In this document: positions 4,629 to 62,419 of the stretch, one piece after another | How positions within the stretch are numbered: the first letter of the stretch is position 1 | Layout of the letters: each line of letters begins with the position of its first letter | Virus record (IMG/VR): IMGVR_UViG_3300045971_000528 | Span: 42,082 to 106,081 of that record | DNA length: 64,000 nt | From: a virus | Direction: 5' to 3' (one strand) | Notes under the pieces: model-generated | What the model was told of the DNA's origin: nothing | Database searches by the model: none | Seen by the model: only the letters and a program-made list of their open reading frames with translations | Made by a program: the position numbers and the translations under genes

Positions 4629-5735
4629 TTAGCAGGCTCTTTCGTCAGGTTGCAGCATCGAGATCAGAGCACCGATGCGGGCTTGTTCGATGCCCTCACC
4701 GATTTCCTTGCCGCTCATGCCATCGGCCACGAACACGGGTGCCAGTTGAGAAGCCAGCGGTTGCGCGAGGCTGAAGCCACCCACCATTTCGCGGGCAGTG
4801 AATGTCTGCGCTGTGCCCAACTTCGCCGCGCCGTAGCTGATCAGCGTGAACAGCTCCAGGCGCTTTTCATTCTGCCAGCCGATGCGCCGCAGCAATGCAC
4901 TCAAATCGCGGGCGGTATGATTGGCTGTGCGGTTCTGGCTGATGAACTGCGCAAATGCCCAACCTTCGCTACCGCCGACCTGCATCGAGAACGCTTGATC
5001 ACTTTGCGCGATGGCTGTGAACGCCAGCACACGTTCGTCCTTGTTGAAGTTCTGGCGAACCCAACCAGCAACATCGGCGAGTCGCAAGGTGTTCATGCCG
5101 CGGAAGAAGCTGACGTGCTGGGTAACCTTCAGCTCATGCAGCATCTTGAAGAAGCGCATGCAGCCCTTGACCGTGCACGTCTTCAGCACCTTGACAATCT
5201 CGGCAGCGAAGCGCTCCCACGGCAGCTCATTCAGCTCGCCGCGTGCGACCATTTCCTGCGCGAATAACAGCGTGACGTCAGCGACCGTGAAATCCTCGAA
5301 GCGACCGTAGAAGCGAGCCAAACGAACGACGCGCAATGGGTCTTCCTTGAAGGCACTCGACACATGGCGTAGGATGCGCTTGTTGATGTCGTTGATGCCG
5401 TCGAACGGGTCGATGAACTCGCTGGTCTCTTCGTCCATGGCGATCGCATTGATCGTCAAGTCACGACGGCCCAGGTCGTCGGCCAGCGTGACATCTTCGT
5501 CGTAGTGCACCGCGAAACCGTGGTAGCCGGCCCCCGTCTTGCGCTCCGTGCGAGCGAGAGCGTATTCTTCACCCGTCGTGGGATGCAGGAAGACAGGGAA
5601 ATCGGCACCGACTTGTTCGTAGCCCATGGCCAGCATCTCTTGCGGGGATGCACCAACGACTACATAGTCACGGTCCTGGATGGAGTTGCCCATCAACAGG
5701 TCACGAACTGCGCCACCAACGAGGTATTGTTTCAT
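4629..5735 (-). CDS. cca: CCA-adding tRNA nucleotidyltransferase
   Basis: 368 aa, close to bacterial class II enzymes. The start LVGGAVRDLLMG, the metal-binding pair in DRDYVVVG (Asp21, Asp23), the RRDLTINAIAMD block (90-101) and DPLRVVRLARF are all in order. The enzyme adds or repairs the 3' CCA of tRNAs. Several tRNAs in this window lack an encoded CCA, so a phage copy makes sense next to the tRNA region and the RNase P RNA gene. It has its own promoter (TGTACA, 16 nt, TAGAAT), whose -10 ends 6 nt before ATG, predicting a leaderless mRNA. Confidence 0.95.
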   Translation of the reverse strand: MKQYLVGGAVRDLLMGNSIQDRDYVVVGASPQEMLAMGYEQVGADFPVFLHPTTGEEYALARTERKTGAGYHGFAVHYDEDVTLADDLGRRDLTINAIAMDEETSEFIDPFDGINDINKRILRHVSSAFKEDPLRVVRLARFYGRFEDFTVADVTLLFAQEMVARGELNELPWERFAAEIVKVLKTCTVKGCMRFFKMLHELKVTQHVSFFRGMNTLRLADVAGWVRQNFNKDERVLAFTAIAQSDQAFSMQVGGSEGWAFAQFISQNRTANHTARDLSALLRRIGWQNEKRLELFTLISYGAAKLGTAQTFTAREMVGGFSLAQPLASQLAPVFVADGMSGKEIGEGIEQARIGALISMLQPDERAC

Positions 5736-23741: not shown

Positions 23742-23749
23742 TATTTATG
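23742..23749 (-). promoter_or_regulatory. T4-type late octamer CATAAATA, 4 nt before ATG
   Basis: It overlaps the encoded CCA of tRNA-Ser(GGA): the tRNA 3' end and the promoter of the next gene share bases. Confidence 0.6.
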
Positions 23750-23839
23750 GAGGAGACGGCGGGATTCGAACCCGCGGATCCTGTGAGGGACCTCAACCTT
23801 TCCAGGGTTGTGCAATCAGCCGGGCTCTGCCACGTCTCC
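23748..23839 (-). tRNA. tRNA-Ser(GGA)
   Basis: Class II tRNA with perfect acceptor and T stems, a long variable arm, and anticodon GGA for TCC/TCT. The discriminator is U rather than G; CCA is encoded. Confidence 0.9.
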
Positions 23840-23899
23840 AGATTGCTGGGATCGCTTTCACGATCCCGTAACTCTTCGTACACTTGGTACGTGAGCTAT

Positions 23900-24133
23900 T
23901 TACTTGGCGGCGGAAGCTGCCTTTGCCGGTACACGTGGGACCACGGTACTTGGGTGAACGTTCTTCAGATGCAGTGCCTTGGCAGCACTGCGTTCACGCT
24001 GATACTTCTTGACAGCAGCCTTGTTCTTGGCTGCTTGGGAAGCTGCAGTAGTTGGTGCTGAAGCTGCAGGTGCTGCCGCTTGAGCGACGAGTGAAGTGGC
24101 CAAAAGGGAGGCCAGCAAAAATGACTTGATCAT
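23900..24133 (-). CDS. Small exported basic protein, 77 aa
   Basis: Signal peptide MIKSFLLASLLATSLVAQAA followed by an Ala-, Lys- and Thr-rich tail (KNKAAVKKYQRERSAAKALH). Low-complexity exported proteins like this occur in Proteobacteria; no function can be assigned. Located between tRNA-Ser and the RNase P RNA gene. Confidence 0.7.
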   Translation of the reverse strand: MIKSFLLASLLATSLVAQAAAPAASAPTTAASQAAKNKAAVKKYQRERSAAKALHLKNVHPSTVVPRVPAKAASAAK

Positions 24134-24142
24134 GGAAGATTC

Positions 24143-24331
24143 CTATTGTTTGGTTGGCAGAGGTGTCTCGCCGCCACCGGCGCGAGTATTTCTACGTTCA
24201 ACGGCAACCTGCACATCGGTCTTGCGGCGATTTCCGACCGCGGCGGTGCGTGGAAATCCGTTGAAGGTTCGGTAAGATGTAAAGCTGACACCACAGAGAA
24301 GCGCGAGAATCGTCAAATCTGCTGGTTTCAT
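24143..24331 (-). CDS. Small protein with hydrophobic N-terminus, 62 aa
   Basis: MKPADLTILALLCGVSFTSY could be a signal or single membrane segment; the rest is basic (GNRRKTDVQVAVERRNTRAG). Follows the RNase P RNA gene. Weak support beyond an open frame. Confidence 0.5.
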   Translation of the reverse strand: MKPADLTILALLCGVSFTSYRTFNGFPRTAAVGNRRKTDVQVAVERRNTRAGGGETPLPTKQ

Positions 24332-24412
24332 CTGTTATCTCCATCCATATGCGTATACCTGCCGGTGATATGGTATTTAGCAGGTTCTGCGCATGAAGCA
24401 CCGTTTGTATTC

Positions 24413-24764
24413 AAAGTCCTATAGCCGGGGTTCTGTCTAGACCTGTCATTCATCTACGGCTTTCACCGTCCTCGTGGGGTTTCAATCCCAGTCATAGGTG
24501 CAACAACCCGTTCCCTCGGCGAGCAGCGTCAGCGAGAACTGTTTGTCTTGCTCCAGAATCGTTGTGGTGCAAACGGGGCTAGCCGTGTTTCCTTACTGCA
24601 AGTCCGTCATTCACGAGAGTAAACACAGAACATCTCATGACACTTTGGCGAAACAAACAGCCTCGCGCTTTGAAGCGAGTCCCCTCCCACAGAGCGATCA
24701 TCCTTGCTCTTCGGAGCCCCGAACTTCCTCTAGACGGTTAGGTTTGTACCACACGGACTGGTTT
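24413..24764 (-). ncRNA. rnpB: RNase P RNA (M1-like catalytic RNA)
   Basis: On the minus strand the 5' part contains GAGGAAGTTCGGGGCTCC (24713-24730), the counterpart of bacterial GAGGAAAGTCCGGGCTCC. The middle contains GGAGCAAGACAAA (24542-24554), matching the conserved GGAGCAAGGCCAAA. The 3' end has TAGATGAATGAC then CAGAACCCCGGCTATA (24420-24455), matching TAGATGAATGAC...CAGAACCCGGCTTAT of E. coli. These elements come in the right order over about 345 nt. AGTCC and GGACT at the two ends can form P1. RNase P trims tRNA 5' ends, and tmRNA is a substrate. Exact ends are approximate. Confidence 0.88.
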
Positions 24765-25001
24765 CATCGACTTGATAGTCTCCACCAGAGGCTCAGCACA
24801 ATTATCGTTGTCACCTAATTCGTCCAGCGACAGGTCGGACTTTGAATTCTTGTCCAATGGATCAAGTGAATGTCGAAGCATCCGATCACGAATGACCTTG
24901 ATCTTCGAACTCCCCTTGTCGCAGTACCAGCAGCTACAATAGATCTTGTGCTTCTGCCGGTTCATCTTGATTCCGCGATCACGGTTCTTTCGATCACTCA
25001 T
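24738..25001 (-). CDS. Small protein with C-x-C-x2-C cluster, 87 aa
   Basis: The basic N-terminus (SDRKNRDRGIKMNRQKHK) precedes YCSCWYCDKGSSKIK, a possible metal site. The acidic C-terminal half runs into the predicted 5' end of the RNase P RNA, so the last codons and the RNA gene overlap by about 27 nt. Probably real but not certain. Confidence 0.55.
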   Translation of the reverse strand: MSDRKNRDRGIKMNRQKHKIYCSCWYCDKGSSKIKVIRDRMLRHSLDPLDKNSKSDLSLDELGDNDNCAEPLVETIKSMKPVRVVQT

Positions 25002-25011
25002 TGAAGTATCC

Positions 25012-25105
25012 TGGCGGTGATGGTGGGATTCGAACCCACGGGCCGTCTTGCGACGACCTCTTCCTTAGCAGGGAAGCCCGATAAGCCTGGCTCTGGCACA
25101 TCACC
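25012..25105 (-). tRNA. tRNA-Ser(GCU)
   Basis: Class II tRNA with perfect acceptor (GGTGATG/CATCACC), long variable arm, G73 and encoded CCA. Anticodon GCU for AGC/AGT. Confidence 0.93.
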
Positions 25106-25110
25106 TTTGT

Positions 25111-25335
25111 TTACTGTCGCGATAGGTGCGACTTGATCGCTGCGCGCATCTTCGGCAGAGAGTCTGCCAAAATGGGCTTGTCATTCAGCCGAATGTAGTA
25201 GTGCCCAGGCTCTCCTGGGACATTCCTGAATCGAATCGTGCCAATGACCTTGTCACCACAACGAGCCTCATAAGTTCCTTCCTCTCGGTCGAGAACTTTG
25301 AGCACGATCTTGTCGGTGATTTCGAGTAGTATCAT
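25111..25335 (-). CDS. Small protein with MILLEI start, 74 aa
   Basis: Starts MILLEITDKIVLKVLDREEG, sharing the array N-terminal motif, then a beta-rich segment (IGTIRFRNVPGEPGHYYIRL). A late octamer ends 5 nt before ATG, again leaving almost no leader. Function unknown. Confidence 0.7.
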   Translation of the reverse strand: MILLEITDKIVLKVLDREEGTYEARCGDKVIGTIRFRNVPGEPGHYYIRLNDKPILADSLPKMRAAIKSHLSRQ

Positions 25336-25340
25336 GCAGC

Positions 25341-25348
25341 TATTTATG
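25341..25348 (-). promoter_or_regulatory. T4-type late octamer CATAAATA, 5 nt before ATG
   Basis: Lies between the 3' end of tRNA-Leu(CAA) and the ATG at 25335. Confidence 0.6.
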
Positions 25349-25433
25349 TGGTCCCCTCGGCGAGACTCGAACTCGCACGCCTTTCAGCACCGGATTTTGA
25401 ATCCAGCGCGTCTACCAATTCCGCCACGAGGGG
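25349..25433 (-). tRNA. tRNA-Leu(CAA)
   Basis: Class II tRNA, perfect acceptor stem, anticodon CAA for TTG, A73 and encoded CCA. Confidence 0.92.
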
Positions 25434-25637
25434 TTAGTTCTTGCAGGTGGGTGTCATGCCTTGAGCATCCACCCACTTCGTTAGGTTGCCGGCACGATCC
25501 TTGATCCACTTCTCACCGCTGATGCAGACGACTGAAGCGTTCGCATCGCGCTTGACCTTTGCTGTGGACATTGCGATGATCAACACCGAGATGGGCACGA
25601 TAGCTGCGATCACGGCGATTAGAAGGGTCTTGTTCAT
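25434..25637 (-). CDS. Small single-pass membrane protein, 67 aa
   Basis: MNKTLLIAVIAAIVPISVLI is a membrane or signal segment; the short outside part has two cysteines (VVCISGEKW, TPTCKN) that could form a disulfide. The stop codon directly abuts the 5' end of tRNA-Leu(CAA). Confidence 0.65.
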   Translation of the reverse strand: MNKTLLIAVIAAIVPISVLIIAMSTAKVKRDANASVVCISGEKWIKDRAGNLTKWVDAQGMTPTCKN

Positions 25638-25649
25638 ACCTTGCCTTGT

Positions 25650-25741
25650 TGGAGGAGATGGTGGGATTCGAACCCACGGCCAGGTTTCCCCAGCTCCGCA
25701 TTTCGAGTGCGGTGCAATAAGCCAGACTCTACCACATCTCC
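25650..25741 (-). tRNA. tRNA-Ser(CGA)
   Basis: Class II tRNA, perfect acceptor and anticodon stems, anticodon CGA for TCG. Discriminator U; CCA encoded. Confidence 0.9.
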
Positions 25742-26169
25742 ATTGTTTCTCTGAGCCCTTGACGAATGTCCATCACGAGCTTTCCTAGTTTGTTCTCTCC
25801 GATCCCGTTGCAGACTCCCCAGTAGATGTCTCCCCAGGTGTTCGTCTCTTCGAGATACATGTCGCCCGTGTTGAGCAACCAGATCTGTTCTTTGCCGTCC
25901 GCGTACTTTTGGAAGTTCACGTCAGCCATAACGTCATCACGAATTCCTTCGTACCAACCCGGTCGAATGACGACCTCTTGACCAAGGCGGCGTGCATCAC
26001 GTGGCTTCTCAGCGGCTTGGATGACTCGACGATGGTCGAGGTTCAGGGTCTTCGCTGCTTGATACGCGTGTTCAGTCGTGCGGTAGATCTCACCGTCATA
26101 CACCACCTTCTTGAAGTGGAAGTTGGAGAGGAACCGAAATGGACCGAAGAAACCGCGGATTGCTTGCAT
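25729..26169 (-). CDS. NADAR-domain protein (YbiA/RibX-like), 146 aa
   Basis: The start is set at MQAIRGFFGPFRFLSNF (26169); the longer frame would run into tRNA-Asn. Family hallmarks: F-x-x-x-F-R-F-L-S-N-F, TTEHAYQAAKTL, DARRLGQEVVIRPGW and WGVCNGIGENKLGKLVM. NADAR proteins act on ADP-ribose or riboflavin-pathway N-glycosidic bonds; some remove ADP-ribose from guanine in DNA, countering ADP-ribosylating toxins. A phage copy could protect DNA or take part in NAD+ metabolism together with the 46-52 kb salvage genes. The 3' end overlaps tRNA-Ser(CGA) by 13 nt. Confidence 0.9.
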   Translation of the reverse strand: MQAIRGFFGPFRFLSNFHFKKVVYDGEIYRTTEHAYQAAKTLNLDHRRVIQAAEKPRDARRLGQEVVIRPGWYEGIRDDVMADVNFQKYADGKEQIWLLNTGDMYLEETNTWGDIYWGVCNGIGENKLGKLVMDIRQGLRETMEMW

Positions 26170-26172
26170 AAT

Positions 26173-26248
26173 TGGCTCCACCTCCTGGGCTCGAACCAGG
26201 GACCCACTGATTAACAGTCAGTTGCTCTACCAGCTGAGCTAAGGCGGA
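26173..26248 (-). tRNA. tRNA-Asn(GUU)
   Basis: Cloverleaf with one wobble in the acceptor stem, anticodon GUU, G73 and encoded CCA. Confidence 0.92.
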
Positions 26249-26261
26249 ATGGAATATTGGG

Positions 26262-26331
26262 GTGGTTGGTATTGTAGCTGCAGATTCGAACTGCTTGAAA
26301 CCATTCTACACTAAGAGTCAGTCAGTGGCCA
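26262..26331 (-). tRNA. tRNA remnant: acceptor and T-arm only
   Basis: A good T-arm (GCAG-TTCGAAT-CTGC) is enclosed by TGTAG/CTACA and followed by ATACCA, but no D-arm or anticodon arm fits. It looks like a deletion product reduced to a minihelix. Confidence 0.35.
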
Positions 26332-26392
26332 CCAACTTTCTCTGATCGGCCGATCACCTGCCCCTCTTGCGAAGGGACCCACCCGTTTTCTG

Positions 26393-26479
26393 TGGTGCGC
26401 GGGGCGGGACTCGAACCCGCATGCCGGTTAAGGCGTCAGGACCTAAACCTGGTGCGTCTACCAATTTCGCCACCCGCGC
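26393..26479 (-). tRNA. tRNA-Leu(UAG)
   Basis: Class II tRNA, perfect acceptor stem, anticodon UAG followed by G37, A73 and encoded CCA. Confidence 0.92.
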
Positions 26480-26627
26480 AGAAACCTTGATCTGAACACC
26501 GACAAAAGGCGATGTCGGAGATTGCCCACCTTTACCAAAGGGCATGGACGAATCGAACGTCCTCGGTTCTATTTCCACAATTGAAGGTAACCAACAATCA
26601 AGCGGTCGGTCTTCAGATCAAGATTCA

Positions 26628-26702
26628 TGGTGCCCCAGGTAGGAATCGAACTCACGACCTACCGCTTACAAGGCGGTTGCTCTACCACTGAGCTACTAGG
26701 GC
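26628..26702 (-). tRNA. tRNA-Thr(UGU)
   Basis: Anticodon UGU for ACA, encoded CCA; one mismatch in the T-stem and one wobble in the acceptor. Confidence 0.88.
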
Positions 26703-26712
26703 ATTCAAACTT

Positions 26713-26788
26713 TGGAGTGGCGAGCCAGAATCGAACTGAGCTTCTGAAGGGTTGCAGCCTTCCGGATGGACCAATCTCCCACCGCCAC
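26713..26788 (-). tRNA. tRNA-Cys(GCA)
   Basis: Anticodon GCA, U73 (the Cys identity base) and encoded CCA. T-stem has one mismatch. Confidence 0.9.
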
Positions 26789-26804
26789 ATTATCTGTTAT
26801 TGTA

Positions 26805-27092
26805 TCACACTGTCAGGACTTCGTGTCCTTCAACAGTCAGGTTGTCCTCTTCTTCTGGAAGCGGATCCTTTGGAATCTTCTTGAGCCAGTCCTGAGGAAC
26901 ATGAACTGTCTCGCCAATACCACCGTACTCGGAGATGAGATCACTGCCTTGGCTCTTCACAAGCCAGATGGTGCCATGTTCAGGGTGCCCGATGTAGTCG
27001 ATCTGAACGCACTCGACGATCTTGCCGGTGGAGTGTCCGTCCAAGCTCTTGATGACCACAGCGAGATCACCTGGTTCTAGTGAGTTCGACAT
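26805..27092 (-). CDS. Hypothetical protein, 95 aa
   Basis: Starts MSNSLEPGDLAVVIKSLDGH; the G-D-L-A-V-V and G-K-I-V-E-C-V strands suggest a small beta barrel. Acidic C-terminus (PLPEEEDN). It overlaps the stop of the next gene upstream by TGATG. Confidence 0.7.
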   Translation of the reverse strand: MSNSLEPGDLAVVIKSLDGHSTGKIVECVQIDYIGHPEHGTIWLVKSQGSDLISEYGGIGETVHVPQDWLKKIPKDPLPEEEDNLTVEGHEVLTV

Positions 27093-27304
27093 CAGACGCC
27101 TGTGCGAAGTTCAGTGATGTGAATCTGTTGGCCGGTGAGCTTCTCGCCGATCACTGTGGTGTCGAGAGCAACCTTGTTGATGAGGTGCGTACCTTCACCG
27201 AGCACACTGACGTCTGCACCAAGTTCGCGCAGCGCGCGTGCGATCGCAACCAAGATGTAGCCCTTACGGGAATGATCTGGACCGCTGACTTGAATCTGAA
27301 CCAT
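27092..27304 (-). CDS. Small protein with degenerate P-loop-like start, 70 aa
   Basis: MVQIQVSGPDHSRKGYILVA followed by IARALRELGADVSVLGEG resembles the first strand, P-loop and helix of small phage P-loop NTPases, but the G-K-S/T signature is replaced by R-K-G, so ATP binding is doubtful. The rest of a NTPase fold is missing. Function unknown. Confidence 0.65.
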   Translation of the reverse strand: MVQIQVSGPDHSRKGYILVAIARALRELGADVSVLGEGTHLINKVALDTTVIGEKLTGQQIHITELRTGV

Positions 27305-27322
27305 CGCTGTCTCCTTGTGGTT

Positions 27323-27414
27323 TGGTAGGACCGCTCGGATTCGAACCGAGATCGTGCGCTAATCTGGCGCTCATGGCTTATAAGGCCACCGCTCTACCGT
27401 TGAGCTACAGTCCC
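27323..27414 (-). tRNA. tRNA-Ile(UAU) with enlarged variable region
   Basis: D-arm, anticodon arm (GTGGC-CTTATAA-GCCAT), T-arm and acceptor with CCA are good. The variable region is 22 nt instead of 5 and contains a GCGC-CAGATTA-GCGC hairpin, which is not expected in an isoleucine tRNA. Confidence 0.8.
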
Positions 27415-27459
27415 TTGGACTGTAGGTATTCGTGAAAAATCCATGTCAAAACTCCTTGA

Positions 27460-27533
27460 GGGTTGCGGGACCCTGAATCGAACAGTACTTCCGGGTTATG
27501 AGCCCAGTGTGCGGCCTCCACACTCGTCCCGCG
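27460..27533 (-). tRNA. Initiator tRNA-fMet(CAU)
   Basis: It has the marks of a bacterial initiator: an unpaired C1-A72, A73, and GGG/CCC in the lower anticodon stem (GGGCTCATAACCC is identical to E. coli tRNA-fMet). The acceptor is otherwise perfectly paired. The T-stem has one mismatch, and the 3' end reads CCC rather than CCA in the DNA. Confidence 0.88.
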
Positions 27534-27543
27534 ATTGATCTTT

Positions 27544-27629
27544 TGGTGCGCCGGGTGGGCCTCGAACCCACAATCCCGGAGGAAGCGGGGCTTAAACCCG
27601 CTGCGTATACCCACTTTCGCCACCGGCGC
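27544..27629 (-). tRNA. tRNA-Leu(UAA)
   Basis: Class II tRNA, perfect acceptor, anticodon UAA with G37, A73 and encoded CCA. Confidence 0.92.
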
Positions 27630-27634
27630 CTTGT

Positions 27635-28033
27635 TCAGGTCTTTGGTAAGCGGACTGTCTTGATGTGAGCTGCTGCAGCCATATCGAATGAAACGATGTG
27701 ATCGTGCAGAATCTCTTCGAGACTCAGAATTGTTTTCTCATTCGACTTCGCCGGCGAAGTCGCAAGCATGTGCATCGCTTGGGCAAGCTCCTTATGGCGA
27801 GCTCGGTGAAGATCAAGACCTGGGCAACCCATGCGCTCCATCAGCGTCTCTTCAACGATGAAGTGCCGGCAGAGCTCACCACAAAAATCAGCGAGCTCGA
27901 TCTGAATGAGATTTTGCGGCACACAAGCAGTAATCATCGCTGCTATGTTCGTAGCCATGATGAGTAGGCTGAAGTGATCAGCGTCCATTTCGAGTACGCC
28001 TGTGGCATACTTGCTTGTCACTTCGGTCATCAT
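27635..28033 (-). CDS. Hemerythrin-like metal-binding protein, 132 aa
   Basis: Ligand motifs are in order: MDADHFSLL (His20), HFIVEETLM (His and Glu), LHRARHKEL (two His) and HDHIVSFD (His and Asp). This matches bacteriohemerythrins, four-helix bundles that bind O2 or NO through a di-iron centre. The length is normal. In a phage it might buffer oxygen or NO or interact with motility regulators; no evidence decides. Confidence 0.88.
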   Translation of the reverse strand: MMTEVTSKYATGVLEMDADHFSLLIMATNIAAMITACVPQNLIQIELADFCGELCRHFIVEETLMERMGCPGLDLHRARHKELAQAMHMLATSPAKSNEKTILSLEEILHDHIVSFDMAAAAHIKTVRLPKT

Positions 28034-28063
28034 GGATTTACGCGAACGTCTCCGGTTTTATTT

Positions 28064-28138
28064 TGGTGCCCATGGAGAGAATCGGACTCTCGACCTCCCC
28101 CTTACCAAGGGGGTGCTCTGCCACTGAGCCACATGGGC
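28064..28138 (-). tRNA. tRNA-Thr(GGU)
   Basis: Perfect acceptor and anticodon stems, anticodon GGU for ACC/ACT, encoded CCA. T-loop TCCGATT as in tRNA-Arg(CCU). Confidence 0.9.
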
Positions 28139-28148
28139 GTTTTTCTAT

Positions 28149-28436
28149 TTAGGCATCCGGGGGTCTATTCAACCTATTTCTGCCGATGTGGTAGCCATCG
28201 CAGTGAATGCACTTGTAGTTGGAGAAGTAGCAGCTGTTCTTCTTGGTCATGGCTGCAGCAGACTTCTCAGCGGTGGCCTTGGTGTTGTACATCACCTTCG
28301 GCTTACCCGATCCCTGAGCAACGTGTGAATTGATGTGGAACAGCCCCCACGCATTGCGAGTGATGAAGAAGTTCCGAAAGAACCGAAGTGGCGGCCCTTG
28401 ATCCAAGAGAGCCAACCAGAGGTTTCTCAGCTTCAT
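28149..28436 (-). CDS. Small zinc-finger-like protein, 95 aa
   Basis: Start taken at MKLRNLWLALLDQ (28436), since the longer frame lies in tRNA-Ala. The C-terminal NYKCIHCDGYHIGRNRL has C-x2-C and a His, the C-x2-C-x-x-Y/W-H pattern of small phage zinc proteins. Basic overall. Confidence 0.7.
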   Translation of the reverse strand: MKLRNLWLALLDQGPPLRFFRNFFITRNAWGLFHINSHVAQGSGKPKVMYNTKATAEKSAAAMTKKNSCYFSNYKCIHCDGYHIGRNRLNRPPDA

Positions 28437-28454
28437 GATTGTTCCTTGATGTAG

Positions 28455-28529
28455 TGGTGGAGACCGCGAGAATCGAACTCGTCTAGACATCCTCGCTGCC
28501 AGCGAGAACCGCAACCCATTGCTGCCCCC
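28455..28529 (-). tRNA. tRNA-Ala(GGC)
   Basis: Anticodon GGC, A73, encoded CCA, and the G3-U70 alanine identity pair. The D-arm is short and the innermost acceptor pair (A7-G66) is mismatched. Confidence 0.85.
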
Positions 28530-28670
28530 AAAATTCTGTGAGGAGCTTTGACTCCTCTCGCTAGCCCCTTCCCTAAGGCTTCTCCTCGAGACCGGCCGGG
28601 ACGTCGAGGGTCTTATCGCTTCTCAGTTTAGCTAGACGCCTTTCGGCGGCACCCTTGCGGGATTCTTGTG

Positions 28671-29273
28671 TTAGCGCAATGAAAGGACGCCATCCTTGAA
28701 GTGGAAACCATCAGCCATATTGGCTGGTTTACGCACGAGTTCTCGAAACGTGCGCTGCTCGCCAGAAACCGCAGCGATTCTTTGCTGTCCTGACGGATGG
28801 GTTCCAGATGCACCAGTGACGCTAAGCAGCTTCGTGAGGCCGGGTAGGATATTCAAACCAGCGTCTCGAGCTATTGCGACGCCAAGAAGATCGGCATCGT
28901 ACTCGCGGTTCCAGGTTTCTTGCTCATTCTTTGGTAGCACAGAGAGATCAAGTTGATGTGAGTGGCCCAATGCGCAGTGAGCAAGCTCGTGAGCAACCGC
29001 AGCAGTGAAGGCTTCACCATCCATACCCTTGAGGAAGGTTGATGACACCTGGAGGCGGCAACCATCGGTGTACACAACAAACGGAAATCGCGGTGCTGAC
29101 GAATCTTCCTTGATGGTGAGAGTTGCCGCGGGTACTCTTGGTGCGTAGTGCGCAAGATGCTCTACTACGGTGCGGGCTTCTTCTTGAGGCATCGCCTGTA
29201 TGCACGGCACAGTGAAGGCAGACAAGAGGATGAGCAGCAATCGAGCTGCTCGGGGCTTGATTTGTCGGTCCAT
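28671..29273 (-). CDS. M48-type zinc metallopeptidase, exported, 200 aa
   Basis: The start is set at MDRQIKPRAARLLLILL (29273) because a TATAAT hexamer ends 6 nt upstream. The first 27 residues form a signal peptide. HELAHCALGH (95-104) is the H-E-x-x-H zinc site and EYDAD (124-128) carries the third ligand, as in M48 peptidases. No further membrane segments are visible, so it is probably periplasmic. Related small M48 proteins occur as BepA-like chaperone-proteases of the outer membrane. Confidence 0.85.
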   Translation of the reverse strand: MDRQIKPRAARLLLILLSAFTVPCIQAMPQEEARTVVEHLAHYAPRVPAATLTIKEDSSAPRFPFVVYTDGCRLQVSSTFLKGMDGEAFTAAVAHELAHCALGHSHQLDLSVLPKNEQETWNREYDADLLGVAIARDAGLNILPGLTKLLSVTGASGTHPSGQQRIAAVSGEQRTFRELVRKPANMADGFHFKDGVLSLR

Positions 29274-29279
29274 AGATGC

Positions 29280-29307
29280 ATTATACACCAATGGGGGTCC
29301 GCGTACA
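29280..29307 (-). promoter_or_regulatory. Sigma70-like promoter TGTACG-16-TATAAT, leaderless
   Basis: The -10 (29280-29285) ends 6 nt before the ATG at 29273. Confidence 0.65.
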
Positions 29308-29439
29308 GGTTACAGTGTAACAACTGCCTGCATGTTCTCGGCTGCACTTTCCTACCTTGCTCCTGGATTCGTTGAAGCGATCTACGTTCGGGCGGCCTAC
29401 GAAAGTGTATCAGCACGCCTCAAGGCATTTACAACCTAG

Positions 29440-29475
29440 AGAGACGGAATACGGTAGCGAACCATTTTCCGTCTC
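29440..29475 (-). terminator. Long hairpin with AGAGACGGAA/TTCCGTCTCT stem
   Basis: A perfect 10-bp stem with a 15-nt loop immediately downstream of tRNA-Pro(CGG); may end or process the upstream tRNA transcript. Confidence 0.5.
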
Positions 29476-29485
29476 TCATTCTGTT

Positions 29486-29560
29486 TGGTCAGGGACCTGG
29501 GAGTTGAACCCAGACTACTCGGCTCCGGACCGAATCGGCTGCCACACGCCTCCGTCCCTG
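29486..29560 (-). tRNA. tRNA-Pro(CGG) with C33
   Basis: C1-G72 and A73 (proline identity), perfect acceptor and T stems, encoded CCA, anticodon CGG. The universally conserved U33 is C. Confidence 0.75.
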
Positions 29561-29751
29561 TTGTGAGGGGGCTCAAGCCACTGGCCAGTGACTAACGACG
29601 GTATCCTGACAGTTAGAGCCGCGGCCCCACTTGCACATCCCGTTCTCGCTAACTTGAACCACTTTGTTCGGCCCTATCGTAGGCGCATCTTACGATGCCG
29701 AAGTAGCCGATGCTGCGCAAGCATCGATCTTCCTACGCCTAAGGACTTGAT

Positions 29752-29839
29752 TGGTGCGGGTGAGAGGACTCGAACCTCCACGGTCGCAATGACCAACGCC
29801 TTCTGAAGACGCCGCGGCTACCAATTTCGCCACACCCGC
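29752..29839 (-). tRNA. tRNA-Leu(CAG)
   Basis: Class II tRNA, perfect acceptor, anticodon CAG, A73 and encoded CCA. Confidence 0.9.
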
Positions 29840-29970
29840 AATATTCGTGGCCCTTTATTCGGCTTCCGCCTTATTCTCAAACCGGCTTGAACGGATCCTT
29901 AACCCACCCCGGTACCATTGGGTGGAGGAGCGACGGTACTGCATACGCCAACGCTGCAGTTACGACAACT

Positions 29971-30060
29971 TGGTGCCCTGAGTCGGACTCGAACCGACAT
30001 CCACTAGTTTCGTGGCCGACCTTCTCAGGGTCGTGTGTTTACCAATTTCACCACCAGGGC
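29971..30060 (-). tRNA. tRNA-Leu(GAG)
   Basis: Class II tRNA, anticodon GAG in a perfect stem (CGACC/GGTCG), A73 and encoded CCA. Confidence 0.9.
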
Positions 30061-30067
30061 AGAATAC

Positions 30068-30142
30068 ATTGACAGCAAAGGAGCGAGACGGAGATTCCCT
30101 TTCGGGAAGACTGGTGCGTCTGCCAATTTCGCCACCACCGAC
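30068..30142 (-). tRNA. Degenerate tRNA-Leu-like remnant
   Basis: The 5' part (GGTGGCGAAATTGGCAGACG) matches the leucine D-arm of its neighbours, but the anticodon stem is broken and no T-arm forms. Confidence 0.4.
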
Positions 30143-30145
30143 AAC

Positions 30146-30225
30146 GTTCATCGGCGGGAAGGACTCGAACCTTCATGCCCTGTTACGGGCGCCTGTTTGA
30201 GATAACCATACTCTATCGGCTGTCA
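30146..30225 (-). tRNA. Degenerate tRNA-like sequence
   Basis: A perfect T-arm (GAAGG-TTCGAGT-CCTTC), a GCCC/GGGC hairpin and a D-arm-like GAG/CTC are present, but acceptor strands do not pair and no acceptable anticodon loop was found. Confidence 0.35.
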
Positions 30226-30311
30226 AATCTTGGTGGTTGACTCCACCTGCTGCTTGGCCTCTGCCGTAGATCAACGGTGACGGTTGCAGCGCCTTGCTAT
30301 TGTCTTGGTGT

Positions 30312-30392
30312 TCATTGGCTGGGAATCGAACCCGTACGGACGGCATCAGTCCGCGTCTACCAACCCAGATCGCCTTAGGGACTGGCCAATGA
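30312..30392 (-). tRNA. Atypical tRNA-like gene with enlarged D region
   Basis: Perfect 7-bp acceptor stem and a strong anticodon-type hairpin (CGGAC/GTCCG), but G33, an extra 15-20 nt before the D-arm, and no encoded CCA. The amino acid cannot be assigned. Confidence 0.4.
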
Positions 30393-30400
30393 ACGAATTG

Positions 30401-30480
30401 TGGTAGCGGGGGCGGGATTTGAACCACGCGATCTCTAGCTTATGAGGCTAGCGGGAACGGCCAGGCTTCCCTACCCCGCG
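30401..30480 (-). tRNA. tRNA with CAU anticodon, initiator-like acceptor
   Basis: C1 opposite U72 and the D-loop AGCCTGG resemble an initiator tRNA, but the anticodon stem (CTAGC/GCTAG) lacks GGG/CCC. One base is bulged in the T-stem. CCA is encoded. It could be elongator Met or a tRNA-Ile needing lysidine. Confidence 0.65.
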
Positions 30481-30485
30481 TCAGA

Positions 30486-30740
30486 TTACTTGAAGTTGAA
30501 ATGGTCCAGCAGATCTGCTGGAATCGTGTCAAAGTGAAACTCAACAACTTCCAGGCCGGTACGAAGATCACGCGTCGAATCATGGATCGACTGGCGTGGG
30601 CCACGTGGCTGAGAGAGGTTGGTCGGTGGGCGCAGATCATCTCCATGGAGAGTCGTATTCACCCAATCGCGAACACCAGCATCACGGCTGGCAGATGAAC
30701 TACCGGTCATTTTCCTGGTCCTTTCACTGTTGAAATTCAT
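30486..30740 (-). CDS. Hypothetical protein, 84 aa
   Basis: Hydrophilic, Arg- and Asp-rich (SASRDAGVRDWVNTTLHGDD). A downstream ATG with an AGGA site (MTGSSSAS) is an alternative start. Located between tRNAs; coding status is only moderately supported. Confidence 0.5.
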   Translation of the reverse strand: MNFNSERTRKMTGSSSASRDAGVRDWVNTTLHGDDLRPPTNLSQPRGPRQSIHDSTRDLRTGLEVVEFHFDTIPADLLDHFNFK

Positions 30741-30794
30741 GGGGCATGCTGAGCAAAATCCCCGAGGTCCTGCTTCCGCGGCCTCATATTGTTT

Positions 30795-30880
30795 TGGAGC
30801 GGGTGATGAGAATCGAACTCACATGCGACTTGCGTCTGCCGGCTTGGAAGGCCGGTGCCCTGCCAATGGACCACACCCGC
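30795..30880 (-). tRNA. tRNA-Gly(UCC) with extended variable region
   Basis: Perfect acceptor and anticodon stems, U73, encoded CCA, anticodon UCC. The variable region is about 16 nt and can form a GAC-GCAA-GTC hairpin. Confidence 0.87.
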
Positions 30881-30889
30881 GTTAGTGTT

Positions 30890-30963
30890 TGGAGCGGAAG
30901 ACCGGAATCGAACCGGCGACTAAACGATGGCAACGTCTCGAGATACCACTTCACCACATCCGC
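30890..30963 (-). tRNA. tRNA-Gly(GCC)
   Basis: Anticodon GCC, U73, encoded CCA; one mismatch in the acceptor stem. Confidence 0.85.
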
Positions 30964-31219
30964 ATACGGGGGAATTCCACACCCCTCTCGATGTCAAGGC
31001 TTGCTGTCAGTACGGTTTCCCGTTCTTACCATGACCAGATCCACGAGTGAGACCATGTTCTTCTTGACGTCACGGCTTTCTGTCAAGGTCGCTTCCTTCA
31101 TCCCTCTGCATTTTGAGGGCCGTCCGTACGACTTGCGGTCGTAGAAGCTAACGTGGGGTGAGGGAAGGAGTGCGTGCCTTCATTACTCCACGACCTCCCC
31201 TGGTCGTGGCCTCCGAATT

Positions 31220-31327
31220 TGGAGCGGGATAAGAGACTCGAACTCTCGACCTGAACCTTGTTCTAGACACGTCATTTCTTCGATGCCTAGAGGCAAGGTT
31301 CCGCTCTACCAACTGAGCTAATCCCGC
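31220..31327 (-). tRNA. tRNA-Gly(GCC) interrupted in the anticodon loop
   Basis: Both halves are close to E. coli tRNA-Gly(GCC): GCGGGATTAGCTCAGTTGG at the 5' end and AAGGTTC...TCCCGCTCCA at the 3' end, with perfect acceptor and anticodon stems. A 32-nt segment (31260-31291) separates position 36 from 37. Removing it restores the normal loop TTGCCAA. The insert folds into a 9-bp hairpin. Confidence 0.85.
31260..31291 (-). other. 32-nt hairpin insert between tRNA-Gly positions 36 and 37
   Basis: TCTAGGCAT pairs with GTGTCTAGA (9 bp with G-U pairs) around a 12-nt loop. It is far shorter than a group I intron; whether it is spliced, excised or inactivating is unknown. The border is ambiguous by one C. 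Confidence 0.75.
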
Positions 31328-31647
31328 ATGGCGCTGACTAGGCTGTCACAGCGCTGTGATGCATTCACCGGCTGGGCATGGGTAACCCATTCTCCTGCAC
31401 CTTCCAGCTGAGGACAGCAGCTGAAAACTGTTCGTGCGTGGTGGCACTTTCGAACGTACCGGCCACATTGCACTAGGGACCGACTGAACTTCAGTCGGGG
31501 ATCCACCACCTTGTTCAGAAGGGAACAAGGAACCTTGATCATTGAACTCAACGACTGCACATCCTGAGAAGGAATTTAACGACTTTGTCAGCAGTCTCGC
31601 GTTATAAAGTGGGGTGTCTCGGTTACTAACCCACACGTTCAAAAGGG
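31328..31647. other. Gene-free stretch with several hairpins
   Basis: No coding frame with good support. Self-complementary segments follow one another: TCACAGCGCTGTGA, ATGGGTAACCCAT, a CAGCTG pair, CGACTGAACTTCAGTCG and a CCTTGTTC/GAACAAGG stem. Could be spacer RNA or an unrecognised structured RNA within the tRNA transcript. Confidence 0.4.
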
Positions 31648-31720
31648 TTCAACAGGTAGGAATCGAACCTACATCTCCCAGCTCCACGCCAGGGCTCTGA
31701 CCAATATGAGCTACCGTCGA
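31648..31720 (-). tRNA. Atypical tRNA, UGG anticodon by position, G33
   Basis: T-arm perfect, acceptor paired with two G-U pairs (U1-A72), anticodon-type stem CCTGG/CTGGG. Position 33 is G, and the 3' end reads CCC rather than CCA. Identity uncertain; a canonical tRNA-Pro(UGG) lies 160 nt away. Confidence 0.4.
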
Positions 31721-31726
31721 AAGGGG

Positions 31727-31798
31727 TTGTCTTAGCCAGGATTTCGAAACCTGGACCTCCCGGGTACACCGGGCGTGCTCCCATTACACTACAGACAA
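31727..31798 (-). tRNA. Atypical tRNA-like gene, possible GUA anticodon
   Basis: Acceptor TTGTCT/AGACAA, D-arm and a CCCG/CGGG anticodon stem are visible. The T-loop has nine bases and two extra bases separate T-stem and acceptor. No CCA. Bacterial Tyr tRNAs have a long variable arm, absent here, so identity is uncertain. Confidence 0.35.
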
Positions 31799-31802
31799 AG
31801 GG

Positions 31803-31880
31803 GTTTGCTTCACGTAGAGTTCGAACTACGTCCTTCCGGTAGAAATCCGGGTGTGCTTGACCTTACACCATCAGCAAAAC
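31803..31880 (-). tRNA. Atypical tRNA-like gene, possible UUC anticodon (Glu)
   Basis: Anticodon-type hairpin CCGG-ATTTCTA-CCGG and a strong D-stem (GGTG/CACC) are present. The T-loop has eight bases, the acceptor has a bulge, and there is no CCA. Confidence 0.35.
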
Positions 31881-31881
31881 T

Positions 31882-31958
31882 TGGTCGGAGTACAAGGATT
31901 CGAACCTTGGACCCCCTGGTCCCAAACCAGGTGCGCTACCAGACTGCGCTACACTCCG
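31882..31958 (-). tRNA. tRNA-Pro(UGG)
   Basis: Canonical: C1-G72, A73, encoded CCA, perfect anticodon stem, anticodon UGG with G37. Confidence 0.93.
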
Positions 31959-32009
31959 ATGAAACTATTGCAAGCAAAAAGCGATGAAGGAGTTGCTCCC
32001 CGACTGGAG

Positions 32010-32090
32010 CTTGGAATCCCTTTCGAGACTCCATGGAGTCGAACCATGCATCTGTAAGATAACCTTCAACAAGCGGCTTGCGAATTCTAT
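32010..32090 (-). tRNA. tRNA remnant, T-arm plus possible UAC loop
   Basis: A perfect T-arm (CATGG-TTCGACT-CCATG) is preceded by CTTACAG, a valine-type anticodon loop, but stems and acceptor are mostly lost. Confidence 0.3.
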
Positions 32091-32095
32091 TTATC
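32088..32095 (-). promoter_or_regulatory. Late-type octamer GATAAATA within the tRNA region
   Basis: GATAAATA on the minus strand upstream of the remnant at 32010; may be fortuitous. Confidence 0.4.
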
Positions 32096-32108
32096 ATAGA
32101 GCCCTTTG

Positions 32109-32183
32109 TCTGGGCGGCAGGATTCGAACCTGCGATCTATCGGGTCCAGACCGAGGATGTTGGCCAGGCTACACTACGCCCAG
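32109..32183 (-). tRNA. Atypical tRNA-Pro-like (UGG, C33), no CCA
   Basis: C1-G72 acceptor and good T-arm; anticodon UGG by position with C33, as in tRNA-Pro(CGG). The acceptor helix continues outside the tRNA: CCTTTGT and ACAAAGG extend it to 14 bp, so normal end processing is questionable. Confidence 0.5.
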
Positions 32184-32273
32184 ACAAAGGACTCTATGAC
32201 TTCAATTCAAGAGAACAAAAGGCGTTGAGGGCTGTTTCATAGCCTGATAACCCTCAACAACGGTTCTCGTATT

Positions 32274-32360
32274 TGGTGCGGGTAAGAGGACTCGAACCTC
32301 CACTCCCTTGCGGGAACAAGCACCTCAAGCTTGCGCGTCTACCAATTCCGCCATACCCGC
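32274..32360 (-). tRNA. tRNA-Leu(GAG), second copy
   Basis: Class II tRNA, perfect acceptor, anticodon GAG with G37, A73 and encoded CCA. Differs clearly from the copy at 29971. Confidence 0.9.
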
Positions 32361-32433
32361 ATGAATCTCTCGAGGACGGTTGCAGCGTCCTCTTCCCTAA
32401 CCGGCTATTTGCAACGACCGGATCGGAGTACCT

Positions 32434-32509
32434 TGGTGGAGGATATCGGTCTCGAACCGATCACCTCAAGCTTGCAAAGCTAGCGCTCTCCCAGATGAGC
32501 TAATCCCCC
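32434..32509 (-). tRNA. tRNA-Ala(UGC)
   Basis: G3-U70 pair, A73, encoded CCA and anticodon UGC; one mismatch in the anticodon stem. Confidence 0.9.
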
Positions 32510-32527
32510 AAAAATCTATCTTCAAAC

Positions 32528-32617
32528 TGGCGGGGTCGGTGAGATTCGAACTCACGGGCCGATTTCTCGACCGTCGGTTTTCAAGACCGGTGCGTTAGAC
32601 CGCTCCGCCACGACCCC
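32528..32617 (-). tRNA. tRNA-Ser(UGA)
   Basis: Class II tRNA, perfect acceptor, G73, encoded CCA, anticodon UGA. Confidence 0.93.
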
Positions 32618-32624
32618 ATTGTCT

Positions 32625-32701
32625 TGCGTCCCGTACAGGATTTGAACCTATGTTGCCGCCCCGAAAAGAGGCAGAGTCCTGAGCCACTAGACGAACGGGA
32701 C
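32625..32701 (-). tRNA. tRNA-Glu(UUC) with nine-base anticodon loop
   Basis: The body follows E. coli tRNA-Glu closely (GTCCCGTTCGTCTAG start, G73). The stem CTGCC/GGCGG encloses nine bases containing UUC instead of seven. The 3' end is not CCA. Confidence 0.7.
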
Positions 32702-32709
32702 AAACAAAT

Positions 32710-32785
32710 TGGTGGAGGCCGGGAGAATCGAACTCCTCTAGTCACAGTGCTTGCAAGGCACCGCCGGATCCCAATCACTGCCCCC
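32710..32785 (-). tRNA. tRNA-Ala(UGC), second copy
   Basis: G3-U70, A73, encoded CCA, anticodon UGC. It resembles tRNA-Ala(GGC) at 28455 in its short D-arm and A7-G66 mismatch, suggesting a shared origin. Confidence 0.85.
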
Positions 32786-32789
32786 AATT

Positions 32790-32873
32790 TGGTGTAGTCG
32801 GTTGGATTCGAACCAACGCGTCGTTAGAGACTGTTTTACAGACAGCCGGTTTCAGCCACTCACCCACGACTAC
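32790..32873 (-). tRNA. tRNA-Tyr(GUA)
   Basis: Class II tRNA with perfect acceptor, anticodon GUA, A73 and encoded CCA. Confidence 0.92.
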
Positions 32874-32962
32874 ATAATTGTTCCCCTAGTCAGGGGGTGA
32901 ACCTCAACTCATCACCGTTCCGCGGTACAAACGCGATCCTCCGAGTTGAAACTCATACATCT

Positions 32963-33048
32963 TGGTGGGTAGCCTAGGAGTCGAACCTAGTGTGCCGTAA
33001 GGCGGCGGGGTTACAGCCCGCTGCAGTCGCCAGTGCTGCTCGCTACCC
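32963..33048 (-). tRNA. tRNA-Tyr(GUA), second copy
   Basis: Class II tRNA with perfect acceptor and anticodon stems, anticodon GUA and encoded CCA; different in sequence from the first copy. Confidence 0.88.
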
Positions 33049-33128
33049 ATGAATTTTCCATTTGGGAATCACACTTACCTTGGCTATCCCTTGCGGGCCC
33101 TCCGAAATGAGGGAGTATGATTACCAAA

Positions 33129-33203
33129 TGGTCGGAACTGTAGGGATCGAACCTACGACCTTCGCCTTGTAAGGGCACCGCTCTACCGCTGAGCTAAGCT
33201 CCG
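33129..33203 (-). tRNA. tRNA-Val(UAC)
   Basis: First tRNA of the long transcript. Anticodon UAC, A73, encoded CCA; C1-G72 and one mismatch in the anticodon stem. Confidence 0.9.
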
Positions 33204-43045: not shown

Positions 43046-43120
43046 TGGTGCGCCCGGCGGGAATCGAACCCGCGCCAAAGGATTTAGAATCCCCTACTCT
43101 AACCGCTGAGCTACGAGCGC
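43046..43120 (-). tRNA. tRNA-Arg(UCU)
   Basis: Acceptor stem with one wobble, perfect T-stem, anticodon UCU for AGA, encoded CCA. The anticodon stem has one mismatch. Has its own promoter at 43140. Confidence 0.88.
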
Positions 43121-43139
43121 GTATTTGGTGCATGTAGCC

Positions 43140-43168
43140 ATTATACCATAAGCGCCGAATCCGGACAA
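43140..43168 (-). promoter_or_regulatory. Sigma70 promoter TTGTCC-17-TATAAT of tRNA-Arg(UCU)
   Basis: -35 at 43163-43168, -10 at 43140-43145, about 20 nt before the tRNA 5' end. Confidence 0.75.
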
Positions 43169-43430: not shown

Positions 43431-43448
43431 ACGGACCCGAAGGTCCGT
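43431..43448 (-). terminator. Hairpin terminator of the tmRNA gene
   Basis: ACGGACC and GGTCCGT form a 7-bp stem around a TTCG-type loop, followed on the minus strand by TGTTGTTT. Confidence 0.75.
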
Positions 43449-43735
43449 GTCGGATGACTCAGCGAACTGAGTCACCTACCGTTTGATGACAAGGACCGGG
43501 TGTCCTCGCAAAGCTTACGCCGCTAGGCGCAGTCCTTCGAAGTTAGCATCGTTTGCAGATACTTGGTTTTGCTTGATTTACGGTCATCGCCTACCGAGCG
43601 CAAGAAAAGTTACTAGTCTGTCGGTCGATTACCAGATCACCCCCATCAGAAGAACACCCGCAGATGCGCTTATGGTGGAGGTGGGGGGATTTGAACCCCC
43701 GTGTCGCCAGCATTTCTCAGTCCTCGTTTACGCTG
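43449..43735 (-). ncRNA. ssrA: Circularly permuted two-piece tmRNA
   Basis: On the minus strand the acceptor piece comes first: GGGGG-TTCAAAT-CCCCC T-arm, then CACCTCCACCA (CCA at 43673-43675). After 28 nt the 5' piece starts with GGGGGTG (43644), which pairs with CACCTCC including a G3-U70 pair, the alanine identity. GATCTGGTAATCGACC follows, matching the tmRNA D-like region. The resume codon GCA at 43554-43556 opens the tag ANDANFEGLRLAA, ending TAA at 43515. This gene order is the permuted form known from alphaproteobacteria, some betaproteobacteria and cyanobacteria. tmRNA rescues stalled ribosomes and tags products for proteolysis. Outer ends are approximate. Confidence 0.92.
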
Positions 43736-44356
43736 TTATTGGAAGCCTGGGTTCAGGCGTCCCAATTTCAAATTCTTCGTCCTCTCGTCAGTGATGGCAA
43801 GCAGAAAATTGGTAGTTGAATCATTATACCACCTTTTCCCGTACGTGCCATTCTTTTTGCACTTTTTGTTTTCGATCCATTCGCTTGACAAAATCCATCC
43901 AACAGGTTGATCACCACGAACAAACCTCCTTCGGTCGCCATCAGCATCTCGATAGATGCTCGTACCAAATGCAGAATTTGTATCGCCTTGCTGGTGGTTG
44001 ATCGATGCGTATGTGTTCTTCCGTTTAGCAACCGCTTCTGGTGTGGAAGCCTGGGCCGTGGCATATTCTTGGTTCTTCGTATTTAGTTTCCAATTAGCAG
44101 ATGTCGGCTTTTTCCAGGGTTGATTTGCAGCGACTGCCTTATGACCACCTAGTCTTTGCAGCTCATGCACTAATTCTGACTTCGAGATAATTCCTGCCAA
44201 ACCTTTCCAAGCCAACTTGTCCTCTACTCTACCGTGCGTTTCATAGAGCAGCCGGTGTGCTTCGGCGTGTTCAGCAACGGTGAGCAGTTCTATGTTGTCT
44301 GGAGAATCTGTTCCACCAGCATGTGTGGGAATTTTGTGATGACGATGTTTCAACAT
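43736..44356 (-). CDS. HNH homing endonuclease-like protein adjacent to ssrA
   Basis: 206 aa. MLKHRHHKIPTHAGGTDSPD then NIELLTVAEHAEAHRLLYE is an HNH-type core with H-H-K-I-P, N and H ligands. The C-terminus KRWYNDSTTNFLL...GRLNPGF shares W-Y-N-x-x-T-x-x-F-L...G-R-L with the GIY-YIG protein. The stop codon lies exactly where the tmRNA acceptor piece begins, so it was probably inserted at or next to ssrA. The sequence is AT-richer than its neighbours. A perfect TATAAATA ends 4 nt before ATG. Confidence 0.85.
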   Translation of the reverse strand: MLKHRHHKIPTHAGGTDSPDNIELLTVAEHAEAHRLLYETHGRVEDKLAWKGLAGIISKSELVHELQRLGGHKAVAANQPWKKPTSANWKLNTKNQEYATAQASTPEAVAKRKNTYASINHQQGDTNSAFGTSIYRDADGDRRRFVRGDQPVGWILSSEWIENKKCKKNGTYGKRWYNDSTTNFLLAITDERTKNLKLGRLNPGFQ

Positions 44357-62410: not shown

Positions 62411-62419
62411 GATGATGTC

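What the first reader, a model, noticed from the sequence alone, without database searches (positions are those of the whole stretch)
43431..43735. Phage-encoded, circularly permuted tmRNA with tag ANDANFEGLRLAA
Seen: CCA-ended T-arm half precedes a 5' half that starts GGGGGTG; the two form a 7-bp acceptor with a G3-U70 pair, and the tag frame starts at GCA and ends at TAA. Known: permuted two-piece tmRNA occurs in alphaproteobacteria, some betaproteobacteria and cyanobacteria. Inference: the phage may redirect proteolysis tagging or keep rescue going late in infection. The tag has the usual A-N-D start and A-A end but an unusual centre (F-E-G-L-R).
Basis: partly seen in the sequence, partly recalled or inferred. 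Interest (0 to 1): 0.85.

Follow-up and report, generated by a model that had tools for sequence, protein, structure and literature searches.

The report
Permuted tmRNA gene in tRNA-rich phage
A large bacterial virus carries its own two-piece copy of tmRNA, the RNA that frees stuck ribosomes and tags their unfinished proteins; the gene is real and well formed, but other phages are already known to carry such genes.

Summary
Confirmed. Window 43785-43431 (minus strand) holds a circularly permuted tmRNA gene. Two Rfam models match (beta_tmRNA 90.5 bits; tmRNA_permuted 90 bits), the two halves form a 7-bp acceptor with G3-U70, and the tag reads ANDANFEGLRLAA then TAA. ARAGORN finds the gene but calls a wrong tag. 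A promoter-like site (TGGTATAATG) and an intrinsic terminator suggest a separate transcription unit. The record is a 106-kb phage fragment with 56 predicted tRNAs (all 20 amino acids), a CCA-adding enzyme and an RNA ligase. No SmpB was found, so the host's would be used. Large-phage relatives keep the gene with diverged tags (ANSDSFRLVA, ANDNDVLANEFALAA), as expected of a selected RNA. The coding half is of the betaproteobacterial type and the tag core NFE resembles one such bacterial tag, so the tag is not odd. Phage-borne permuted tmRNA is known (Melnitz, Mosig, DSS3_MAL1): this is a new member of a known kind. Less expected: a tRNA with anticodon CUA lies near the tmRNA here and in relatives, with the same -10 motif here. 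That could couple amber suppression to ribosome rescue, but no UAG recoding was seen, so it stays a hypothesis.

The parts
43823..43851 (-). promoter-like site: ATGGCA, 17 nt, TATAAT with TG before it (TGGTATAATG); lies inside the 3' end of the endonuclease ORF
   Evidence: consensus scan; TGGTATAATG occurs only 3 times in the 106-kb record, all on the coding strand. A consensus match, not proof of use.
43645..43785 (-). acceptor half of the tmRNA (T-arm, CACCUCC acceptor strand, ACCA) followed by the 28-nt spacer that is removed in known two-piece tmRNAs
   Evidence: RF01850 and RF04321 alignments; fold; spacer length
43515..43644 (-). coding half: GGGGGUG acceptor strand, D-like loop, hairpin CGGU-AGGCGAUG-ACCG, tag frame
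   Evidence: 76% over 88 nt to a bacterial beta-type tmRNA from the PK1 region through the tag
43515..43556 (-). tag reading frame ANDANFEGLRLAA and stop TAA
   Evidence: start at GCA by alignment to RF04321 and relatives
43452..43514 (-). 3' part of the coding piece after the tag (region modelled by beta_tmRNA)
43431..43448 (-). intrinsic terminator, ACGGACC-UUCG-GGUCCGU then TGTTGTTT
   Evidence: same motif behind the relative's tmRNA
43046..43120 (-). tRNA with anticodon CUA (possible amber suppressor), own TGGTATAATG at 43139-43148
   Evidence: ARAGORN, RF00005 68.8 bits, promoter-like site
43736..44356 (-). HNH / homing-endonuclease-like ORF (206 aa) ending just upstream of the tmRNA core
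   Evidence: phrog_655 homing endonuclease, E 7e-9; HNH below Pfam cut-off
4629..5735 (-). CCA-adding enzyme (tRNA nucleotidyltransferase)
   Evidence: phrog_2244 E 3e-90; PolyA_pol head domain
23748..33203 (-). tRNA array inside the window (27 ARAGORN tRNAs here, 56 in the whole 106-kb record)

Best explanation
The locus is a phage gene for a two-piece tmRNA that most likely works. Proposed steps: (1) transcription from a sigma70-type promoter near 43823 to the UUCG terminator at 43431; (2) RNase P and host 3'-end nucleases remove the spacer, leaving an acceptor piece and a coding piece held by the acceptor stem and P2; (3) host AlaRS charges it through G3-U70, and host SmpB and EF-Tu bring it to ribosomes stuck at mRNA ends; (4) ANDANFEGLRLAA is added and UAA releases the ribosome; (5) host proteases degrade the tagged protein. 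The likely benefit is to keep rescue capacity up during infection while host RNA decays, as one part of a near-complete phage decoding kit (56 tRNAs, CCA-adding enzyme, RNA ligase). Shown here: anatomy, pairing and covariation, retention in relatives with diverged tags, context. Inferred: expression, processing, charging, tagging, use of host proteins, benefit.
For: Two Rfam models above cut-off; acceptor halves pair in the free fold; covariation; G3-U70 kept in G007 although three other acceptor pairs changed on both sides; relatives G001, G008 and G007 keep a permuted tmRNA on the same strand as and within 6 kb of the NAMPT gene, each with a full tag frame ending in TAA; promoter-like site and terminator; tRNA-rich context and CCA enzyme, RNA ligase; function of two-piece tmRNA established in Caulobacter (Keiler 2000, cited in PMC3985003).
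Against: No expression data. No SmpB in the phage or relatives, so function depends on a host that has a compatible SmpB. The D-loop region (GGUAAUCGACC) departs from the usual GGUUUCGAC. The record is a fragment and the host is not identified.
Confidence: 0.78

Rival explanations
1. Amber-rescue pair: the neighbouring CUA tRNA suppresses UAG stops and sends ribosomes to mRNA ends; the phage tmRNA, whose tag stop UAA the tRNA cannot suppress, clears them. The two genes are kept together for that reason.
For: CUA tRNA 0.4 kb downstream here with the same TGGTATAATG; one about 1.15 kb downstream of the tmRNA in G001/G008; DSS3_MAL1 has both within about 5 kb; all tags in this phage clade end in TAA; suppressor tRNAs do create work for SsrA in E. 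coli (Ueda 2002, cited in PMC3985003).
Against: No in-frame UAG use: the standard code scores better in G000, G008 and G002. UAG is rare as a stop also in G005, which has no CUA tRNA. The two in-frame TAG junctions are not conserved in relatives. About 120 other viral permuted-tmRNA loci show no CUA tRNA nearby, and 30 of their tags end in TAG. Related Roseobacter phages have the tmRNA without a CUA tRNA in the stretch read. G002 has two CUA tRNAs and no permuted tmRNA. These phages have so many tRNAs that neighbours are expected.
Confidence: 0.1
2. Decoy or inhibitor: the phage RNA competes with host tmRNA for SmpB and ribosomes, as shown for the tag-less tmRNA-like RNA of phage DS6A.
For: A phage RNA of this general kind inhibits endogenous tmRNA (DS6A, in PMC11915505).
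Against: DS6A's RNA lacks a coding region; here the tag frame, its stop and the downstream region are intact and a tag frame is kept in relatives.
Confidence: 0.05
3. Captured host gene without function, for example carried in by the adjacent homing endonuclease or by past recombination, and decaying.
For: An endonuclease-like ORF ends 2 nt before the RF04321 match.
Against: Intact pairing with compensatory changes, intact tag, and retention in relatives in the same neighbourhood.
Confidence: 0.06

Closest known systems
Two-piece ssrA of Methylophilales phage Melnitz and Pelagibacter phage Mosig (PMC9004378)
   Same: Permuted tmRNA encoded by a phage; use of host trans-translation proteins presumed
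   Different: Alphaproteobacterial-type tmRNA there, with a glutamine riboswitch reported in Melnitz; here a beta-type coding half, no riboswitch found by Rfam, and a very large tRNA set
Permuted tmRNA of Roseobacter-type phages DSS3_MAL1, MD18, DSS3P8, V10, RpAliso, RcXuper
   Same: Permuted tmRNA in a tRNA array with a nucleotidyltransferase gene nearby; DSS3_MAL1 also has a CUA tRNA
   Different: Alpha-type tags such as ANTNAAPMEMAIAA; genomes about 147-150 kb; mostly unannotated
Betaproteobacterial permuted tmRNA (Rfam RF01850)
   Same: Full-length match; a bacterial example (L156, tag ANDDNFEVALAA) shares the hairpin CGGUAGGCGAYGACCGUAAAUC and the tag core NFE
   Different: Phage copy has a 28-nt spacer, a longer tag and a divergent D-loop
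Sinorhizobium jumbo phage AP-J-162 (PMC11242549)
   Same: Very tRNA-rich jumbo phage (66 tRNAs) with one tmRNA
   Different: Form of its tmRNA not stated in the passage read; alphaproteobacterial host

Membership tests
Permuted (two-piece) tmRNA | Covariance match to permuted tmRNA models | tested here: met
   RF01850 90.5 bits (cut-off 84), RF04321 90 bits (cut-off 47), both full length
Permuted (two-piece) tmRNA | Gene order: acceptor half with CCA before the 5' half with the tag frame | tested here: met
   Sequence and alignment
Permuted (two-piece) tmRNA | 7-bp acceptor with G3-U70 for alanine | tested here: met
Permuted (two-piece) tmRNA | Tag frame with resume codon, hydrophobic -AA end and stop | tested here: met
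   ANDANFEGLRLAA*, TAA
Permuted (two-piece) tmRNA | Cleavage of the precursor into two RNAs | not testable with these tools
   Needs RNA from infected cells
Permuted (two-piece) tmRNA | SmpB-dependent tagging of stalled nascent chains | not testable with these tools
   No SmpB in the phage; host not known
Beta-type permuted tmRNA | Matches the beta model better than the alpha and cyano models of the clan, and shares the beta coding half | tested here: met
   cmscan keeps RF01850 as the best of the clan for this locus; coding half matches bacterial beta-type L156 and none of the alpha examples
Phage using UAG-recoded code with suppressor tRNA (code 15) | UAG read as sense in genes | tested here: not met
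   Standard code scores better; UAG still ends 14 of 151 called genes
Phage using UAG-recoded code with suppressor tRNA (code 15) | tRNA with CUA anticodon | tested here: met
   43046-43120

The most novel reading that the evidence does not exclude
The CUA tRNA and the permuted tmRNA form a conserved phage unit in which amber suppression and ribosome rescue are coupled, under a shared promoter type and with the tmRNA tag stop kept as UAA.
Probability: 0.1. Interest if true: 0.75.

Novelty: new member of a known kind. Interest (0 to 1): 0.38.

Why it matters
It shows that beta-type permuted tmRNA occurs in a lineage of very large, tRNA-rich phages, with tags that change quickly while the fold and G3-U70 stay. 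If active, it is a natural system for asking why phages carry a ribosome-rescue RNA at all. The nearby CUA tRNA gives a specific, testable idea about suppression and rescue. It also shows that standard annotation can miss such genes or give them a false tag.

Tried and rejected
UAG recoding in this phage and two relatives: rejected. Amber read-through at the two in-frame TAG junctions of the window: downstream ORFs have their own starts and relatives do not keep the junctions. Rarity of UAG stops as a sign of suppression: not specific, G005 shows it too. Phage SmpB and peptidyl-tRNA hydrolase: none found. A general link of permuted tmRNA with CUA tRNA: not seen near about 120 viral loci, though flanks were short. 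Genome-contig scan with a short 5'-half pattern: matches were mostly chance. Tree of tmRNA cores: too weakly resolved to use, and my regular expression missed nearly all bacterial rows; replaced by direct similarity. ARAGORN's tag for the window gene (DDRKSSKTKYLQTMLTSKDCA) rejected against two covariance models. Host species: not determined; a betaproteobacterium is inferred from the coding half only.

Full report
Observation. On the minus strand, 43785-43431, the order is: T-arm and ACCA end, 28-nt spacer, GGGGGUG 5' half, tag frame, hairpin terminator. Rfam beta_tmRNA (90.5 bits, E 5.2e-26) and tmRNA_permuted (90 bits, E 5.5e-16) both match full length above their cut-offs. The acceptor halves pair in the unconstrained fold (z -4.2). 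The tag is ANDANFEGLRLAA with stop TAA. ARAGORN detects a permuted tmRNA but assigns a false tag, which a pipeline annotation would inherit.

Beyond chance. I aligned 34 diverse viral permuted tmRNAs. T-stem and acceptor pairs are all standard, with both-side changes at 6 of 12 pairs; no shuffle reached this and slid controls pair at most 70%. The acceptor is partly fixed by the search pattern used for most rows. The independent case is G007, reached through a neighbouring protein: its acceptor GGGCCCG/CGGGUCC keeps G3-U70 while three other pairs changed on both sides.

Whose genome. The window is part of a 106,081-base viral record. It encodes NAD-salvage enzymes, a virion structural protein, 56 ARAGORN tRNAs covering all 20 amino acids, a CCA-adding enzyme and, outside the window, an RNA ligase. 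By its NAMPT protein it is related to viral contigs of up to 343 kb. Of these, G001 and G008 carry a permuted tmRNA with tag ANSDSFRLVA and G007 one with tag ANDNDVLANEFALAA. The tmRNA lies on the same strand as NAMPT and within 6 kb of it in all of them, downstream in the window and G001, upstream in G007. G008 has 44 ARAGORN tRNAs and G002 has 52.

Type of tmRNA. The coding half matches a bacterial beta-type permuted tmRNA (L156, tag ANDDNFEVALAA) at 76% over 88 nt, while no alphaproteobacterial example in the set matched at the same threshold. Only 1 of 274 genomes drawn from the class of the Duganella reference had this form over the cut-off, against 174 of 190 for permuted tmRNA in the class of the Falsiruegeria reference. 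The host is therefore probably, not certainly, a betaproteobacterium with the permuted form. The tag core NFE and the -RLAA end both have parallels, so the tag is not unusual.

Expression signals. TGGTATAATG occurs three times in 106 kb, all on the coding strand: before the tmRNA, before the CUA tRNA, and at window 53273. The tmRNA copy lies in the 3' end of the endonuclease-like ORF 43736-44356. A UUCG hairpin with a T-rich tail ends the locus, as in G001.

Mechanism. The best-supported reading is an ordinary two-piece tmRNA that uses host SmpB, AlaRS, EF-Tu, RNase P and proteases and supports ribosome rescue during infection. No SmpB was found in the phage or in relatives. Expression, processing and tagging are inferred, from the homology and from what is established for two-piece tmRNA in Caulobacter (PMC3985003).

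The CUA tRNA. It sits 0.4 kb downstream of the tmRNA. G001/G008 have one about 1.15 kb downstream of theirs, with its own TATAAT but an odd T-loop; G002 has two but no permuted tmRNA. DSS3_MAL1 has both genes within about 5 kb. Suppressor tRNAs are known to create nonstop ribosomes handled by SsrA (Ueda 2002, cited in PMC3985003). Against a functional coupling: the standard code fits these genomes, UAG is rare as a stop also in a relative without a CUA tRNA, in-frame junctions are not conserved, and most other permuted-tmRNA loci lack a CUA tRNA nearby. In genomes with more than 40 tRNAs, proximity of one more tRNA is weak evidence. I keep the coupling as a hypothesis at about 0.1.

Known or new. 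Phage two-piece tmRNAs were described for Melnitz and relatives, and 53 of 133 tmRNA structures in phage genomes were predicted two-piece (PMC9004378). The tmRNA database lists 79 phage sequences of all forms (PMC11915505). A 66-tRNA jumbo phage with a tmRNA is published (PMC11242549). The finding is a new member of a known kind, in a phage lineage where I found no published description of it.

Noticed in passing
L088 579-877 and 6532-6902: One 8.5-kb viral contig carries two permuted tmRNA genes with different tags (ANDEVYDLAIAA and ANDDIYSLAA).
   Followed up: no
L292 1117-1794 (minus), in G002: A 225-aa protein with an RF-1 domain in a relative that has two CUA tRNAs and no permuted tmRNA; the usual GGQ stretch reads GGSGWVN, so it may not hydrolyse peptidyl-tRNA.
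   Followed up: partly
L286, L287, L288, L289, L290, L291: Permuted tmRNA genes found by ARAGORN but not annotated in phages MD18, DSS3P8, V10, RcXuper, RpAliso and CcrPW.
   Followed up: partly
L016 2864-2935: tRNA with anticodon CUA in G001 that has a non-canonical T-loop (GUAGGCA) and is missed by ARAGORN.
   Followed up: partly
L018 (G007 tmRNA): tmRNA with an unusual T-loop GGCAGAA as well as a rewritten acceptor stem.
   Followed up: no
window 31223-31327: A tRNA found by Rfam (54.7 bits, 105 nt) but not by ARAGORN; the extra length suggests a large variable arm or an insertion.
   Followed up: no
window 61742-63004: Two adjacent, similar-looking coiled-coil-rich ORFs in the same frame separated by a TAG and three codons; G008 has a homologue of only one of them.
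   Followed up: yes
window 11335-11949: HAD domain of the 'Swiss Army Knife RNA repair' type (Pfam PF18143, E 1e-14), which together with the RNA ligase outside the window may form an RNA-repair set.
   Followed up: no
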